Origin: Nitrospirota bacterium
GTDB taxonomy: Bacteria > Nitrospirota > Thermodesulfovibrionia > Thermodesulfovibrionales > Magnetobacteriaceae
DNA length: 63,455 bases
Assembly: GCA_015233015.1 (NCBI GenBank)
Contig: JADFYO010000016.1
Coordinates: forward strand, 1 to 63,455
Direction of reading: 5' to 3'
Positions 7,079-16,638 of this stretch are shown here, one piece after another. Both the position numbers and the translations under genes were made by a program. The number at the start of each line of letters is the position of its first letter. Position 1 is the first letter of the stretch. The notes beneath the pieces were generated by a model that was not told the DNA's origin, made no database searches, and saw nothing but the letters and a program-made list of their open reading frames with translations.

Positions 7079-7549
7079 ATGTCAAATATGGTCAAAATAT
7101 TAGAGATTCTGAGCGATGATGATATTCAGTGGCTTTTGTCGATGGGCATGGAAGAACACCTTGAACCGGAGACAATGATAATAAAAGAGGGTGAGTTTAC
7201 AGAGGCCGTCTATATAGTTCTCGAGGGGCTTTTAGGCGTCTTTGTATCTGCAAGCGGCTATAAGCAGGTTGCGACGATTGGCGCCGGCGAGATTATAGGA
7301 GAGATGTCCTATCTGGAGAATGAGCCGACATCGGCCGCAGTCATTGCAATTGAGCCGTCAATACTGCTTTCCATTTCAAAAGATGCTCTGGACAACAGGA
7401 TTAACTCAGACCCCACATTCGGAAACCGCCTATACAGAGGCATAGGCACGGCAATATCGCAGCGCCTGAGAAAGGCTATGTCGCGCATCGAATTTATACT
7501 TGCTCAACTGGAAATCGCCAAAAAATTTCCCATAGAAACCTCAGAATAG
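7079..7549 (+). CDS. Cyclic-nucleotide-binding-fold protein without DNA-binding domain
   Basis: A 156-residue single-domain protein of the CRP/cNMP-binding beta-barrel type: an early helix, then IIKEGEFTEAVYIVLEGLLGVF, GEIIGEMSYLE and a C-terminal helical tail (IGTAISQRLRKAM). In the phosphate-binding cassette the usual Arg after the Pro is replaced (NEPTSAAV instead of PRSA), so ordinary cAMP binding is doubtful. There is no helix-turn-helix, so it is not a Crp-type regulator. It follows pilB by 25 bases and may modulate the pilus motor or act as a protein-interaction module; that role is inferred from position. Confidence 0.75.
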   Translation: MSNMVKILEILSDDDIQWLLSMGMEEHLEPETMIIKEGEFTEAVYIVLEGLLGVFVSASGYKQVATIGAGEIIGEMSYLENEPTSAAVIAIEPSILLSISKDALDNRINSDPTFGNRLYRGIGTAISQRLRKAMSRIEFILAQLEIAKKFPIETSE

Positions 7550-7561
7550 AGCCATGATCAA

Positions 7562-8050
7562 ATGACAATTCATACAATAGGACATTCCGACATTTTAACA
7601 TCGGACTTTATCAAACTCATCGATACAGCCGAAATCGAAACTCTCGTTGACGTAAGAAGCAGCCCGTACAGCCGCTACGCCCCGCAGTTTAACAGAGAGA
7701 ACCTAATACGTGCGCTTCAGAAAACTCCCATTCGATATCTCTACATGGGCGGCCAATTAGGTGGATACCCAAAAGACGCGCCCATATACAGGGGAAAACA
7801 CCCCGATTACGATCTGCTTCGCAAGCAGACATTCTACATAGACGGCCTTAAAAAACTCCTTGACATCGCCTCAACCGGCAGCATTGCCATCATGTGTTCA
7901 GAGGAAGACCCATATACATGCCATCGAAGAGCCTTAATCGGCTTTGACCTGCATGAACGGGGGATTAAGGTAATTCACATACGAGGGAACGCCACAATGT
8001 GTGAGGACGATTTTAGTGATATATCAACCATTCAACTATCATTATTTTAG
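7562..8050 (+). CDS. DUF488 protein with C-terminal QLSLF motif
   Basis: A 162-residue DUF488 family member. Diagnostic segments are TIHTIGHS at the start, VDVRSSPYSRYAPQFN, the GGQLGGYP segment and CSEEDPYTCHR near residue 120. The last five residues are QLSLF, which matches the bacterial beta-sliding-clamp binding pentapeptide QL[S/D]LF and stands at the free C-terminus. The biochemical activity of DUF488 is not established; conserved Cys, His and Arg residues suggest an enzyme or nucleic-acid-handling role. It is the first gene of a DUF488-DUF488-dual-OB set and lies only 12 bases after the cNMP-fold gene. The ribosome-binding site is weak. Confidence 0.85.
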   Translation: MTIHTIGHSDILTSDFIKLIDTAEIETLVDVRSSPYSRYAPQFNRENLIRALQKTPIRYLYMGGQLGGYPKDAPIYRGKHPDYDLLRKQTFYIDGLKKLLDIASTGSIAIMCSEEDPYTCHRRALIGFDLHERGIKVIHIRGNATMCEDDFSDISTIQLSLF

Positions 8051-8060
8051 CTCAGTAGCT

Positions 8061-8117
8061 ATTATAACACTATGAAAATATTATAACATTATGATAATAT
8101 TATATCACTATGACAAT
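8061..8117. repeat. Three tandem 19-bp repeats covering the start codon of the second DUF488 gene
   Basis: Three contiguous 19-base units start at 8061, 8080 and 8099. Each begins ATTATA and contains an ATG (at 8072, 8091 and 8110), and the copies differ at only a few positions. The ATG in the third unit is the start codon of the gene at 8110. The 57 bases are more than 80% A+T and contain no Shine-Dalgarno sequence. Confidence 0.85.
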
Positions 8118-8550
8118 ACACACGATAGGCTTCTCAAAGAAACCTGCCAAGCTGTTTTTCTCTATTCTTCGTGCCAACTCCATAAGACAGATAGTTGATA
8201 TAAGAGAAAACAACACTTCTCAGCTTGCAGGATTTACAAAAAAAGAAGACCTGAGATTTTTCCTGAGAGAAATCCTCGACGCCTCATACATACATATCCC
8301 CGAACTTGCCCCCGACAAACTCATACGAACAACCTATAAGACGACAAAAAACTGGGAGCAATACACGGCATCCTACATTAAACTAATCGAAGACCGCAAC
8401 ATAATAAGCCAGTTAAAAGCTGATAACCCATTTATCGAACCCTTCGCACTTCTATGTTCGGAGCCAAAACCAGATAAATGCCACAGGCGGCTAGCCGCCG
8501 AAATGATAATTGAGCGCTTATTCCCCAATGGAGAAATCTTACACCTATAA
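8110..8550 (+). CDS. Second, divergent DUF488 protein
   Basis: A 146-residue paralogue of the preceding gene. It keeps TIHTIGFS at the N-terminus, the VDIRENN segment in place of VDVRSSP, and a CSEPKPDKCHRR motif near the C-terminus, but it has lost the SR..PQFN and LGG segments and has no clamp-like tail. The two paralogues next to each other suggest a heteromer or a divided function. The start codon lies in the third unit of a 19-bp repeat with no ribosome-binding site. The 3' end overlaps the next gene, which implies translational coupling. Confidence 0.8.
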   Translation: MTIHTIGFSKKPAKLFFSILRANSIRQIVDIRENNTSQLAGFTKKEDLRFFLREILDASYIHIPELAPDKLIRTTYKTTKNWEQYTASYIKLIEDRNIISQLKADNPFIEPFALLCSEPKPDKCHRRLAAEMIIERLFPNGEILHL

Positions 8551-9286
8551 GTTTAAACGTACACACGTATTGATTGCCGACCTCACATACATGAGAAACG
8601 GTGTATGTATAGCGGGAATCAATCTCGACAATTTCAAAAACATTCGATCTGTACTATTCTCCGGCCATTTCCAAATGGACTTTATAGAAAAAAACAACAT
8701 CTACCCATGCGCCATAGTCACAGTTGAAGGGATGCCGAAGATTAACGTCATCCCGCCGCACACAGAAGATTTTCAAATAAGAGACAACCCCGAATTCAGG
8801 CGTTTCGTCTCACAAAAAGAGTGGCTTGAGATACTTCGTCAATGCTCACATCACTCCCTTCACGACAGATTGAATAATTCAATCCACGAAAACAAGTGGA
8901 TAACTCCGGGGACAGATGTACCTTCCCTCTCACTTATCAAACTCGAGAACAGACCACTAATCAGCTCAATCACAATAAAAAGAGACACCAGCACTGACAT
9001 CAGGGCATCATTTATCTCTGGCGATAGCGCATTCAATCTTAAACTCAACGACATCCAACTCGTTGATTTTATCGTTAACCGCTATAGAATAAGAACGCTG
9101 GACTCCCCCTCATATGCCGGAGAACAGGTACTTCAGGAAGTAAACGATGAACTATTCCCCGAAAACCAGCACTATTACCTAAGAATCGGCCTGACACGGC
9201 CTTATCAGGAGAAATGCTGGCTTCAGATAAACGGGATTTATTCCGAACGCTCAGACATGCCAATAAGAAAATTCACCGCTGAATAA
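8528..9286 (+). CDS. Dual-OB-like protein of the DUF488 operon
   Basis: About 252 residues from the ATG at 8528 (MEKSYTYKFKRTH). An in-frame TTG at 8510 is possible, but neither start has a good ribosome-binding site; both lie inside the previous gene. The N-terminal half begins LIADLTYMRNGVCIAGI, and the rest is strand-rich with EKCWLQINGIY near the end. This resembles the dual OB-fold proteins annotated beside DUF488 genes, which are predicted to bind nucleic acid. The overlap with the DUF488 gene indicates co-translation. The fold is by recognition only and the function is unknown. Confidence 0.6.
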   Translation: MEKSYTYKFKRTHVLIADLTYMRNGVCIAGINLDNFKNIRSVLFSGHFQMDFIEKNNIYPCAIVTVEGMPKINVIPPHTEDFQIRDNPEFRRFVSQKEWLEILRQCSHHSLHDRLNNSIHENKWITPGTDVPSLSLIKLENRPLISSITIKRDTSTDIRASFISGDSAFNLKLNDIQLVDFIVNRYRIRTLDSPSYAGEQVLQEVNDELFPENQHYYLRIGLTRPYQEKCWLQINGIYSERSDMPIRKFTAE

Positions 9287-13887: not shown

Positions 13888-15180
13888 TCAATGCTTAAAA
13901 ACTCGTTGTCCTGTGAATACCATAGTTACTTTAGGGTCGGCCTCGTTACAAGCGGTTATGGACTCAAAATCGCGGTCAGAGCCTCCAGAATGAACAATAG
14001 CACTCACACCTTCCTCGATACCTACGTCCACACCGTCTCTGAAAGGGAAGAATGCGTCTGAAATCATAGCAGAGCCTATCAGTCCGCCGCGTGCCTGCTT
14101 TGTCTCACTGGCTATTTCATCGAGGGCGTCTCTTTGACGCTTACCCTCTTTGACTTCCTGTTCAAACACCTTTAACGCTATGTTAAATCGCTTAAAACAC
14201 AACGCATCGGCGTACTTCGTGTATGCCTTAAACACGGCTATTTCGGCCACCCCTACCCTGTCCTGCTCACCCGTACCAATTCCCACGGTAACGCCATCTT
14301 TTACGTATATCACGGAGTTTGAGGAAATCCCCTGTTCAATGTTCCAGCCAAAAAGCATATCCTCATATTCACTGTCTTTTGGAGCTCTTTCTATAATATA
14401 ATCCACGCCCTTATATGTGGCCTTCGCAAGCAGAAAATCCTCTTTAGTCCTTATCTTATTAGTCTGCGATTGCTGAATTATCAACCCTCCATCCATCAGA
14501 GATTTGAAATCGATATACTTCACGTCCTTGTATCCTGCAAGATCCCCCATCCTTTTAAGCCGTATTATCCTCAGATTCTTCTTTTTCGTCAGTATCGATA
14601 ACGCGCCATCCTCAAACTCAGGGGCGGCAACAACCTCCAGATAATTAGTAGATATAGCCTCTGCCGTTGCCTTATCTACTGACCTATTCAAAGCCAGACA
14701 GCCGCCAAAGGCAGCAATCCGGTCAGCCATATCCGCCTTTAAATAAGCCTCTTCAATTGTATTGCCATAAGCAGCCCCGCAAGGATTATTATGCTTCAGA
14801 ATAACAGCGGCCGGCCTTTCCGTAAGATACTTCAGAATATTCAGCGCATTATCCAAATCTGTAAGGTTTATCTTACCCGGATGTTTTCCGGCCTGAACCA
14901 TATCCTCTTCGGTGATAGCGCTGACCAAACCCTTTCCCGGCCTCACATACTCACAACCGGCAATCGTAAGATTCCCATTGACCAGCTCATAGACAGCCGC
15001 CTCCTGGTCGGGATTCTCTCCATACCTAAGTCCCTTCTCTATTAAATCCCCTGTCTTGTCGTCCGGTATCTTCCAGGTCCTCTTTTTATAGACCAACTTT
15101 GTATCCCCAAACGTTATAGTCAAATCATCGGGAAAGTGATCATCAAGAATTGTCTTATACATCTTTTTCAGTTCTGCCAT
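13888..15180 (-). CDS. purH: AICAR formyltransferase, stand-alone half of PurH
   Basis: A 430-residue protein equal to the C-terminal domain of bifunctional PurH. It would transfer a formyl group from 10-formyl-tetrahydrofolate to AICAR, the ninth step of purine synthesis. Diagnostic segments are LRYGENPDQEA near residue 50, the catalytic VILKHNNPCGAAYG, AAFGGCLALNR, and FFPFRDGVDVG with SGGSDRD close to the end. GGAGTG precedes the ATG. The cyclohydrolase half is encoded separately at 16045-16638, with a DUF89 gene between; the DUF89 stop is five bases before this start. This is a true gene split rather than a frameshift, since an entire gene lies between. Confidence 0.9.
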   Translation of the reverse strand: MAELKKMYKTILDDHFPDDLTITFGDTKLVYKKRTWKIPDDKTGDLIEKGLRYGENPDQEAAVYELVNGNLTIAGCEYVRPGKGLVSAITEEDMVQAGKHPGKINLTDLDNALNILKYLTERPAAVILKHNNPCGAAYGNTIEEAYLKADMADRIAAFGGCLALNRSVDKATAEAISTNYLEVVAAPEFEDGALSILTKKKNLRIIRLKRMGDLAGYKDVKYIDFKSLMDGGLIIQQSQTNKIRTKEDFLLAKATYKGVDYIIERAPKDSEYEDMLFGWNIEQGISSNSVIYVKDGVTVGIGTGEQDRVGVAEIAVFKAYTKYADALCFKRFNIALKVFEQEVKEGKRQRDALDEIASETKQARGGLIGSAMISDAFFPFRDGVDVGIEEGVSAIVHSGGSDRDFESITACNEADPKVTMVFTGQRVFKH

Positions 15181-15184
15181 ATTA

Positions 15185-16048
15185 TCACTCCTTATTGAGT
15201 TGGCCCTTCAACAGCATAGAGCCTTTAGTTAGATTCAGATGTGCGGCTATGACGTCGCATTTTGCCTGAAACAGGAAAAATACATTCTTATTTTTATCAG
15301 ACTCGAGGGTCTCGAAATTCCCCTGCCCCTTGCTGATAATCAGAGAATGCCTGTTATACTCCCCAACAAAACCCGGGCTGCAAAACTGCAAATCAGTACC
15401 TACGGCGTCAGTGCCGTTGTCTATCACCCTGCAATGGCGTGTTATTCCTGCTTCAAGGGCATCTTCCATAGTAGCATCGTTTATGACCGCGCCGCCTTTG
15501 ACTACGGCCGTGACGCGCTTGCCCATCTCCGTCAGAAGCTCAATCAATAACCTGTCAAAGACTATCTCACCGGCATTGTCTAAGAGATAGAGAACCTCGT
15601 CATGCCTTTGCAGCTCATCTCTGAAGAAATCAAAATCATCGGCGGCGATTGACTTCTCAAGTGAACGGTCGATAGTCTTCTCTACGTCAAAAGACTCATA
15701 GATGCCGAAATCGATAATATTCCCGGCAATAGCAATACGTGCCGCGCTCCAAAGCGGCTCCTTACTCCTTAATACTCTGTCCCTAAGGCCGGAATAAAGA
15801 TTCAACGCAAACCGATTAAATTTTCGCTTCAGCAAGGCATACGGGTCGCGTCCTATCCTCTTTTTTATTGCCCGATATATAAAGGTAGTAGCGTATGCCG
15901 GCGTCCTTTCAACGTCAACATCTTTCAATACTCCCAGTACATCCCCGACTATCTGATAGCGCATACCCTCAGGCATATCAAACTGAGAGAGGGCAGAGAC
16001 CGTCTGCCGTAAAAAACACGGGAAACACTCTATACTAACTTGCATCAT
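15185..16048 (-). CDS. DUF89 (ARMT1-like) putative damage-control phosphatase
   Basis: A 287-residue DUF89 protein. The N-terminal ECFPCFLRQ pair of cysteines is typical of the prokaryotic subfamily, and the metal/phosphate signature [17 protein letters not shown] lies near residue 155, followed by [11 protein letters not shown] and a conserved [11 protein letters not shown]89 proteins are metal-dependent phosphatases thought to remove harmful sugar phosphates and damaged phospho-metabolites. Here the gene overlaps the IMP cyclohydrolase stop by four bases and ends five bases before AICAR transformylase, so it is locked in a purine operon. That suggests a phosphoribosyl-type by-product as substrate; this is inference. 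Confidence 0.85.
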
Positions 16049-16638
16049 CCCGCCGTCTTCAGGTATTTGGCAATAGCGGCGTCATAACCCGATATTATAT
16101 AAAAAACCTTCAAAGCCAACCCCATTCGAAAACCATAACTCAAGCCGCCGCCGGAAGCCCTCATCTCCTCTATTACTTTATCATAATCAACGGGGTCTAT
16201 AACCGGCGCAACATCCTTAAAATTCTTGGCCGCGGCGCGAAGCATCGTCGGGCCGCCGATGTCGATATTTTCGATGGCCTCGTCAAAAGTCACTCCGGGC
16301 TTTGCGACGGTCTTTTCAAATGGATATAGGTTTACCACGACAAGGTCTATAGTTTTAATGCCGTGAGCGGCTATGACGCTCATGTCGGCGGGGTTGTCTC
16401 TGCGGGCAAGTATGCCGCCATGCACCTTTGGATGGAGGGTCTTGACCCTGCCGTCGAGCATTTCGGGGAATCCCGTATATTCCGATATTTCAGTTACAGA
16501 CACCCCTGCCTCTCTCAGCGATTTTGCGGTTCCGCCGGTTGAAAATATCTTTACGCCCATCTCCTGAAGTTTAATTGAGAACTCAACAACGCCCGACTTG
16601 TCGGATACGCTTATAACGGCATTTTCTATCTTGCTCAA
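16045..16638 (-). CDS. purH: IMP cyclohydrolase, stand-alone N-terminal half of PurH
   Basis: A 197-residue protein equal to the methylglyoxal-synthase-like domain of PurH, which closes FAICAR to IMP in the last step of purine synthesis. Motifs: ISVSDKSGV at residue 9, [10 protein letters not shown], the [16 protein letters not shown] signature, [10 protein letters not shown] and [14 protein letters not shown]. It starts at TTG 16638, with GGGAGG six bases upstream; the nearby ATG is blocked by an immediate stop. It ends cleanly at the domain boundary. Together with the gene at 13888 it reconstitutes PurH activity. Confidence 0.9.

What the first reader, a model, noticed from the sequence alone, without database searches (positions are those of the whole stretch)
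7562..9286. DUF488-DUF488-dual-OB operon with a beta-clamp-like tail
Two divergent DUF488 paralogues and a predicted dual-OB protein are translationally linked. The first ends exactly in QLSLF, the consensus bacterial sliding-clamp binding peptide, at a free C-terminus. A nucleic-acid-binding partner plus a clamp tether suggests a replication- or repair-associated (or defence) complex of unknown chemistry. The families are established, but their function is not; the clamp link is inference from the motif.
Basis: partly seen in the sequence, partly recalled or inferred. Interest (0 to 1): 0.72.

Follow-up and report, generated by a model that had tools for sequence, protein, structure and literature searches.

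The report
DUF488 trio with clamp-binding-like tail
Three neighbouring bacterial genes, relatives of an already catalogued candidate anti-virus system, encode two small enzymes and a DNA-binding protein, and one enzyme carries a strongly conserved floppy tail identical to the peptide that replication and repair proteins use to hold on to the ring-shaped DNA sliding clamp.

Summary
Window 7562-9286 encodes DUF488-1 (ends QLSLF), DUF488-2 and a dual-OB protein (DuOB). The trio is not new: PADLOC lists it as phage-defence candidate PDC-M45, although this DuOB escapes PADLOC's PDC-M45A models, and order and fusions differ. What is new is the tail. QLSLF is identical in six close relatives, while every codon of it has changed synonymously. 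AlphaFold leaves it disordered. A Qxx[LMI][FLIV] motif recurs in 22 of 31 diverse trio-type DUF488-1 tails (shuffled mean 2.7), at the C-terminus or internally. It also persists in DUF488-1 genes whose genomes hold no DUF488-2, so that partner is not its target. QLSLF is the measured clamp-binding peptide of B. subtilis PolC. Against a purely DnaN role: archaeal members keep Qxx[L][F/V/I] without having DnaN and without the PCNA motif. DuOB is fused to RecQ or HRDC in relatives; its first OB domain resembles ssDNA-binding OBs; plasmid trios lie beside CBASS or CRISPR genes; lone DUF488-2 genes lie with uvrA, uvrB or a RarA-like gene in formaldehyde-resistance islands. Best reading: a clamp-tethered DNA-processing complex in defence or repair. 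Clamp binding is plausible but unproven.

The parts
7562..8050 (+). DUF488-1 (PADLOC PDC-M45B-like), 162 aa
   Evidence: PF04343 70.2 bits; PDC-M45B E 1.3e-44; AlphaFold mean pLDDT 89.9
7895..7927 (+). Putative active site of DUF488-1, residues 112-122 (CSEEDPYTCHR)
   Evidence: C112, E114, C120, H121, R122 invariant in 32 homologues
8012..8047 (+). Flexible tail of DUF488-1, residues 151-162
   Evidence: pLDDT falls to about 52 and then 36; residues 158-162 below 50
8033..8047 (+). QLSLF clamp-binding-like motif at the free C-terminus
   Evidence: Identical peptide with synonymous codon changes in 6 close relatives; recurrent Qxx[LMI][FLIV] in distant homologues
8060..8118 (+). AT-rich spacer: 3.1 copies of a 19-bp unit, the last supplying the DUF488-2 start codon
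   Evidence: TRF; sequence
8110..8550 (+). DUF488-2 (PDC-M45C-like, DUF488-N3a 'active'), 146 aa
   Evidence: PF04343 and PF22751; PDC-M45C E 1.3e-45; invariant C116, E118, C124, H125, R126 apart from one near-invariant position
8528..9286 (+). DuOB protein (dual OB), 252 aa from ATG 8528; overlaps DUF488-2 by 23 nt
   Evidence: PF22557 41.5 bits; AlphaFold mean pLDDT 91; first OB like telomere-end-binding protein, RecO, PriB and SSB

Best explanation
The operon makes a three-part DNA-directed complex related to PDC-M45. DuOB binds single-stranded DNA or DNA ends. Two different DUF488 enzymes of the rhodanese-phosphatase fold, both with intact Cys/His/Arg sites, act on the DNA end or on an adduct or modified nucleotide. 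The disordered C-terminal QLSLF of DUF488-1 docks in the peptide pocket of the sliding clamp DnaN and so brings the complex to replicating or repairing DNA. Shown here: gene content, intact catalytic residues, OB fold, disorder and conservation of the motif, RecQ/HRDC fusions in relatives. Inferred: complex formation, clamp binding, chemistry, and whether the target is phage or plasmid DNA or damaged host DNA.
For: QLSLF is invariant in L002-L006, L025 and the window although all five codons vary synonymously. Qxx[LMI][FLIV] occurs in 22 of 31 non-redundant trio-type tails against a shuffled mean of 2.7, maximum 8, terminal or internal (GQLSLFDD, NGQLSIFD, RQGSLFD, QLDLFED), as expected of a short linear motif. 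The tail is disordered in the model. It is kept in DUF488-1 of genomes without DUF488-2 (L009 QNTLF, L010 QLTLF, L097 QGVLF), so DUF488-2 is not its target. Literature: QL[S/D]LF, more generally QxxLF, is the clamp consensus; B. subtilis PolC carries it at its C-terminus and a QLSLF peptide binds DnaN at about 7 uM (PMC12309361); a transposase given QLSLF binds the clamp of Leptospirillum, phylum Nitrospira, and C-terminal QLxLF motifs are a general way to reach the clamp (PMC4549789). DnaN is present in this genome. DNA role: DuOB-RecQ-RQC-HRDC and DuOB-HRDC fusions, ssDNA-type OB matches, plasmid trios beside CBASS (L190) and CRISPR csm6/csx16/cas1 (L189).
Against: No binding was tested. Six archaeal genomes with trio or DUF488-1 genes lack DnaN, yet their tails keep QLTLV, QLPLI, QKKLF, QNTLF or QTTLF and did not become the PCNA form QxxIxxFF, as happened in transposases. 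The PDC-M45B subclade of Nitrospira and Proteobacteria mostly has xxDLF without Q. Chemistry is unknown; structural matches of DUF488-1 are weak. In this genus the locus sits in a fixed chromosomal place without defence neighbours.
Confidence: 0.45

Rival explanations
1. The tail is a docking peptide for another member of the module (DuOB or a RecQ-type helicase), not for the clamp.
For: Conserved in archaea that lack DnaN; DuOB-RecQ fusions put a helicase in the same complex.
Against: Tail retained in genomes without DUF488-2, and G158 and G183 also gave no DuOB match; the Q-x-x-L-F pattern is the bacterial clamp consensus specifically.
Confidence: 0.25
2. The tail mimics the C-terminal tip of SSB (acidic residues and a free Phe) and binds SSB partners such as RecQ or RecO.
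For: Window tail is acidic and ends in Phe (CEDDFSDISTIQLSLF); RecQ link.
Against: Motif is internal in many homologues, and the archaeal tails are basic (KKPKKRTVQLTLV is the tail type of L008).
Confidence: 0.05
3. The xxLF element is an inherited structural or truncated piece of the DUF488 C-terminus (or a degron) with no specific partner.
For: In PDC-M45B of Nitrospira and Proteobacteria a homologous internal DLF is followed by a conserved stretch.
Against: Disordered in the window protein, with purifying selection on the five residues.
Confidence: 0.15
4. On the biological role rather than the tail: the module repairs DNA adducts (for example aldehyde damage) and is not an anti-phage system.
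For: DUF488-2 homologues stand alone in formaldehyde-resistance islands beside uvrB (L165), uvrA (L169) or a RarA-like gene (L167); stable chromosomal locus in this genus; RecQ and HRDC fusions.
Against: Plasmid trios beside CBASS, CRISPR and R-M genes; patchy distribution: DuOB in 15 of 296 genomes of the phylum.
Confidence: 0.4

Closest known systems
PADLOC phage-defence candidate PDC-M45 (DuOB, DUF488, DUF488)
   Same: Same three families in one operon; DUF488-1 hits PDC-M45B (1.3e-44) and DUF488-2 hits PDC-M45C (1.3e-45)
   Different: DuOB is not hit by the PDC-M45A models; gene order 488-1, 488-2, DuOB instead of DuOB first; terminal QxxLF instead of a long tail with internal DLF; RecQ or HRDC fusions in relatives
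DUF488/DUF4326 systems of the rhodanese-phosphatase superfamily (Burroughs and Aravind 2023, lqad029; title seen, content from memory, paper not held)
   Same: DUF488-N3a 'active' subclade and DuOB are named Pfam families; DNA-end processing in conflicts was, as I recall, their prediction
   Different: I could not check whether that paper mentions a clamp-binding tail
Clamp-binding peptides of PolC and IS transposases
   Same: Identical QLSLF, or QLxLF, at a free C-terminus (PMC12309361, PMC4549789)
   Different: Unrelated proteins; DUF488-1 binding not measured; archaeal homologues do not carry the PCNA form
Plasmid DuOB, DUF488-2, DUF4326 operons (L166, L168, L192, L193)
   Same: DuOB and DUF488-2 adjacent
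   Different: DUF488-1 replaced by a DUF4326 protein (with an mSLOG domain in L168)

Membership tests
PDC-M45 | PDC-M45B and PDC-M45C proteins adjacent | tested here: met
   E 1.3e-44 and 1.3e-45
PDC-M45 | PDC-M45A (DuOB) matched by PADLOC's models | tested here: not met
   No PADLOC match at E up to 1, nor in this genome with PDLC04656; it is homologous through Pfam DuOB. Filed as a PDC-M45-like variant, not as a member
DUF488 / rhodanese-phosphatase superfamily | PF04343 domain with conserved Cys...Cys-His-Arg | tested here: met
DUF488 / rhodanese-phosphatase superfamily | Fold like rhodanese or Cys-phosphatases | tested here: inconclusive
   Best Foldseek row is a putative phosphatase 2f46, E 0.011, prob 0.99; VIA rows mainly diphthine synthase-like methylases and a KAP phosphatase, Z 8-9
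DuOB | PF22557 above cut-off with OB folds | tested here: met
   41.5 bits against 27; first OB matches telomere-end-binding protein, RecO, PriB and SSB, Z 7.6-8.5; the second OB was barely tested by that search
Bacterial clamp-binding motif (CBM) | QxxLF consensus in a flexible segment | tested here: met
   QLSLF*; pLDDT below 50
Bacterial clamp-binding motif (CBM) | Motif conserved by selection in homologues | tested here: met
Bacterial clamp-binding motif (CBM) | Motif confined to hosts with DnaN | tested here: not met
   Archaeal genomes without DnaN carry Qxx[L][F/V/I] tails; hence the motif is called clamp-binding-like and not filed as a proven CBM
Bacterial clamp-binding motif (CBM) | Physical binding in the DnaN pocket | not testable with these tools

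The most novel reading that the evidence does not exclude
A candidate defence or repair module of paired DUF488 enzymes and a ssDNA-binding DuOB protein is recruited to replicating DNA through a sliding-clamp peptide, so that the clamp serves as the landing platform of a nucleotide- or DNA-end-modifying system; archaeal members use the same short peptide on PCNA or on another partner.
Probability: 0.4. Interest if true: 0.72.

Novelty: new variant of a known kind. Interest (0 to 1): 0.5.

Why it matters
PDC-M45 and the DUF488 family have no established function. A conserved clamp-type peptide gives a concrete, cheap test of where the complex acts, and the RecQ fusions and repair-gene neighbours suggest its substrate is DNA. 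If true, it would connect an unsolved enzyme family and a defence candidate to the replication fork.

Tried and rejected
L017/L074, which looks like a fused DUF488-1/DUF488-2, is most likely a frameshift (the linker reads like the out-of-frame tail) and was not used as evidence of an interface. Sequence search of solved structures gave no relative of DUF488-1 or DuOB and only chance-level rows for DUF488-2. Phage records: DUF488-2 has no match; DUF488-1 matches only distant DUF488 genes in actinobacterial phages. Papers: no held paper was found to name PDC-M45; the key DUF488 classification paper is not held. Host control: DnaE shows a candidate xPSLF at about the internal clamp-motif region and no canonical Q (not aligned formally), so the host's own preference is only weakly informed. 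VIA-align rows for DUF488-1 do not settle its nearest fold. The motif shuffles treat sequences as independent; the tree needs 5 changes for the terminal-Q state against 13.3 in shuffles, so relatives share it by descent. The regex classes label a few near-matches (QLSFF, QLTFL, QLSLGLF) as none.

Full report
WHAT IS THERE. The three genes are as described. DUF488-1 (7562-8050) ends in QLSLF; DUF488-2 (8110-8550) belongs to the Pfam 'active DUF488-N3' subclade; the third protein is a DuOB (dual OB) protein, best started at ATG 8528. DUF488-2 and DuOB overlap by 23 nt, also in L005, L006 and L025. DUF488-1 and DUF488-2 are separated here by 59 nt containing a 19-bp tandem repeat, so strict coupling of the first pair is not shown.

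ALREADY KNOWN AS. PADLOC calls DUF488-1 PDC-M45B and DUF488-2 PDC-M45C. PDC-M45A is the DuOB: its models hit the DuOB of a plasmid trio at up to 3e-75 and the DuOBs of three Nitrospirota trios. The window's DuOB itself escapes those models, and the gene order here (DUF488-1, DUF488-2, DuOB) differs from the DuOB-first order of typical PDC-M45 loci. [quoted passage not shown] A 2023 classification of the rhodanese-phosphatase superfamily by Burroughs and Aravind (title) is, from memory, the origin of the DUF488-N3 and DuOB families and of a DNA-end-processing prediction; it could not be read here.

THE TAIL. In the six closest loci and the window the last five residues are QLSLF in every case, although the codons differ at every position (for example CAA/CAG, CTA/CTT/TTG/TTA, TCA/TCG/TCC, TTA/CTG/CTA, TTT/TTC), while several preceding residues change. 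The AlphaFold model of DUF488-1 is confident for the core and not for the tail (residues 158-162 below pLDDT 50). In a wider set the motif moves about in the tail: terminal QLSLF, QESLF, QPSLF, QLTLF, or internal GQLSLFDD, GQLSFFGT, NGQLSIFD, SQLTMFQE, RQGSLFD, QLDLFED. Of 31 non-redundant trio-type tails 22 match Qxx[LMI][FLIV]; 500 shuffles give a mean of 2.7 and a maximum of 8. Short solo DUF488 proteins of one Nitrospirota group end without any tail (...KVWVPK), which serves as a negative control, while another solo group often ends in ...PSLF, PRLF or LRLF. On a tree of the cores the terminal-Q state clusters strongly (5 changes, shuffled mean 13.3).

WHAT THE TAIL MAY BIND. The consensus for bacterial clamp binding is QL[S/D]LF, or QxxLF; the peptide QLSLF is the C-terminal motif of B. 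subtilis PolC and binds DnaN with micromolar affinity (PMC12309361). C-terminal QLxLF motifs also let many transposases reach the clamp, and a QLSLF-bearing transposase bound the clamp of Leptospirillum, phylum Nitrospira (PMC4549789). The motif survives in DUF488-1 of genomes where no DUF488-2 is found (G1144, G1145, G158; also G183, with QPSLF in a more distant solo DUF488), which argues against docking on DUF488-2. The counter-evidence is serious: six archaeal genomes have no DnaN but keep QLTLV, QLPLI, QKKLF, QNTLF or QTTLF, and none has the PCNA-type QxxIxxFF that archaeal transposases carry. Either the archaeal copies are transfers with a decaying motif (most nest beside bacterial sequences, and F5 has become V or I in several), or PCNA accepts the short form, or the true partner is something else. 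In the Nitrospira and proteobacterial PDC-M45B clade the leading Q is usually lost (xxDLF).

THE DNA LINK. Homologous DuOB proteins are fused to a full RecQ (DEAD, helicase C, RecQ zinc, RQC, HRDC; L011) or to HRDC alone in a closer Nitrospirota relative (L007; same sequence in G114). The first OB of the modelled window DuOB aligns best with telomere-end-binding protein, RecO, PriB and SSBs (Z about 7.6-8.5, near the level that common folds reach). Plasmid trios lie beside CBASS (Agrobacterium, L190) and Csm6/Csx16/Cas1 (Allochromatium, L189); a DuOB, DUF488-2, DUF4326 operon lies beside a NotI-type R-M system (L166). In L166, L168, L192 and L193 a DUF4326 protein takes the place of DUF488-1 (L193 judged by its sequence). 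Lone DUF488-2 homologues on IncHI2 and other plasmids sit in formaldehyde-resistance islands with uvrA, uvrB or a RarA-like gene. Both a defence and a repair role are therefore open.

LOCAL CONTEXT. In L003 and L004 the trio has the same upstream (PilB-like ATPase, cNMP-binding protein) and downstream (MCP) genes as in the window; L002 shares the upstream part; L005 and L006 share upstream genes with a large gene inserted. The trio proteins are less conserved (DuOB 62-67%, DUF488s 69-81%) than the flanking ATPase (77-93%). No PADLOC system was found among the nearest neighbours; the cNMP domain only resembles the sensor of Pycsar effectors. The locus is thus vertically kept in this genus, not a fresh island.

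VERDICT.

Noticed in passing
window 13888-16638 (minus strand): purH appears split: MGS plus the first 58 positions of AICARFT_IMPCHas (16048-16638) and the rest of AICARFT (13891-15180) are separated by an ARMT1-like damage-control phosphatase gene (15185-16048).
   Followed up: no
window 8060-8118: Three copies of a 19-bp AT-rich unit (TATTATAACACTATGAAAA), each containing an ATG; the last copy provides the DUF488-2 start. L003 has only a 4-nt gap there.
   Followed up: partly
window 7079-7549: A stand-alone cNMP-binding protein lies 12 nt upstream of DUF488-1 (same spacing in L003 and L004); its domain matches Pycsar effector sensors, but it also follows a pilB-like gene.
   Followed up: partly
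L165, L167, L169: Solo DUF488-2 (DUF488-N3a-type) genes in plasmid formaldehyde-resistance islands, each beside a different DNA-repair gene (uvrB, RarA-like, uvrA).
   Followed up: partly
L112-L136 (Nitrospirota solo DUF488): A separate solo DUF488 group repeatedly ends in xLF at the C-terminus (DPSLF, QPSLF, PRLF, TLRLF), perhaps an independent clamp-like tail.
   Followed up: partly
L166, L168, L192, L193: Plasmid operons DuOB, DUF488-2, DUF4326 (mSLOG-DUF4326 in L168), in which DUF488-1 is replaced by a DUF4326 protein.
   Followed up: partly
L005 610-3765 and L006 877-3993: A gene of about 1040-1050 aa is inserted between the cNMP-binding gene and the trio in two relatives; function not examined.
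   Followed up: no
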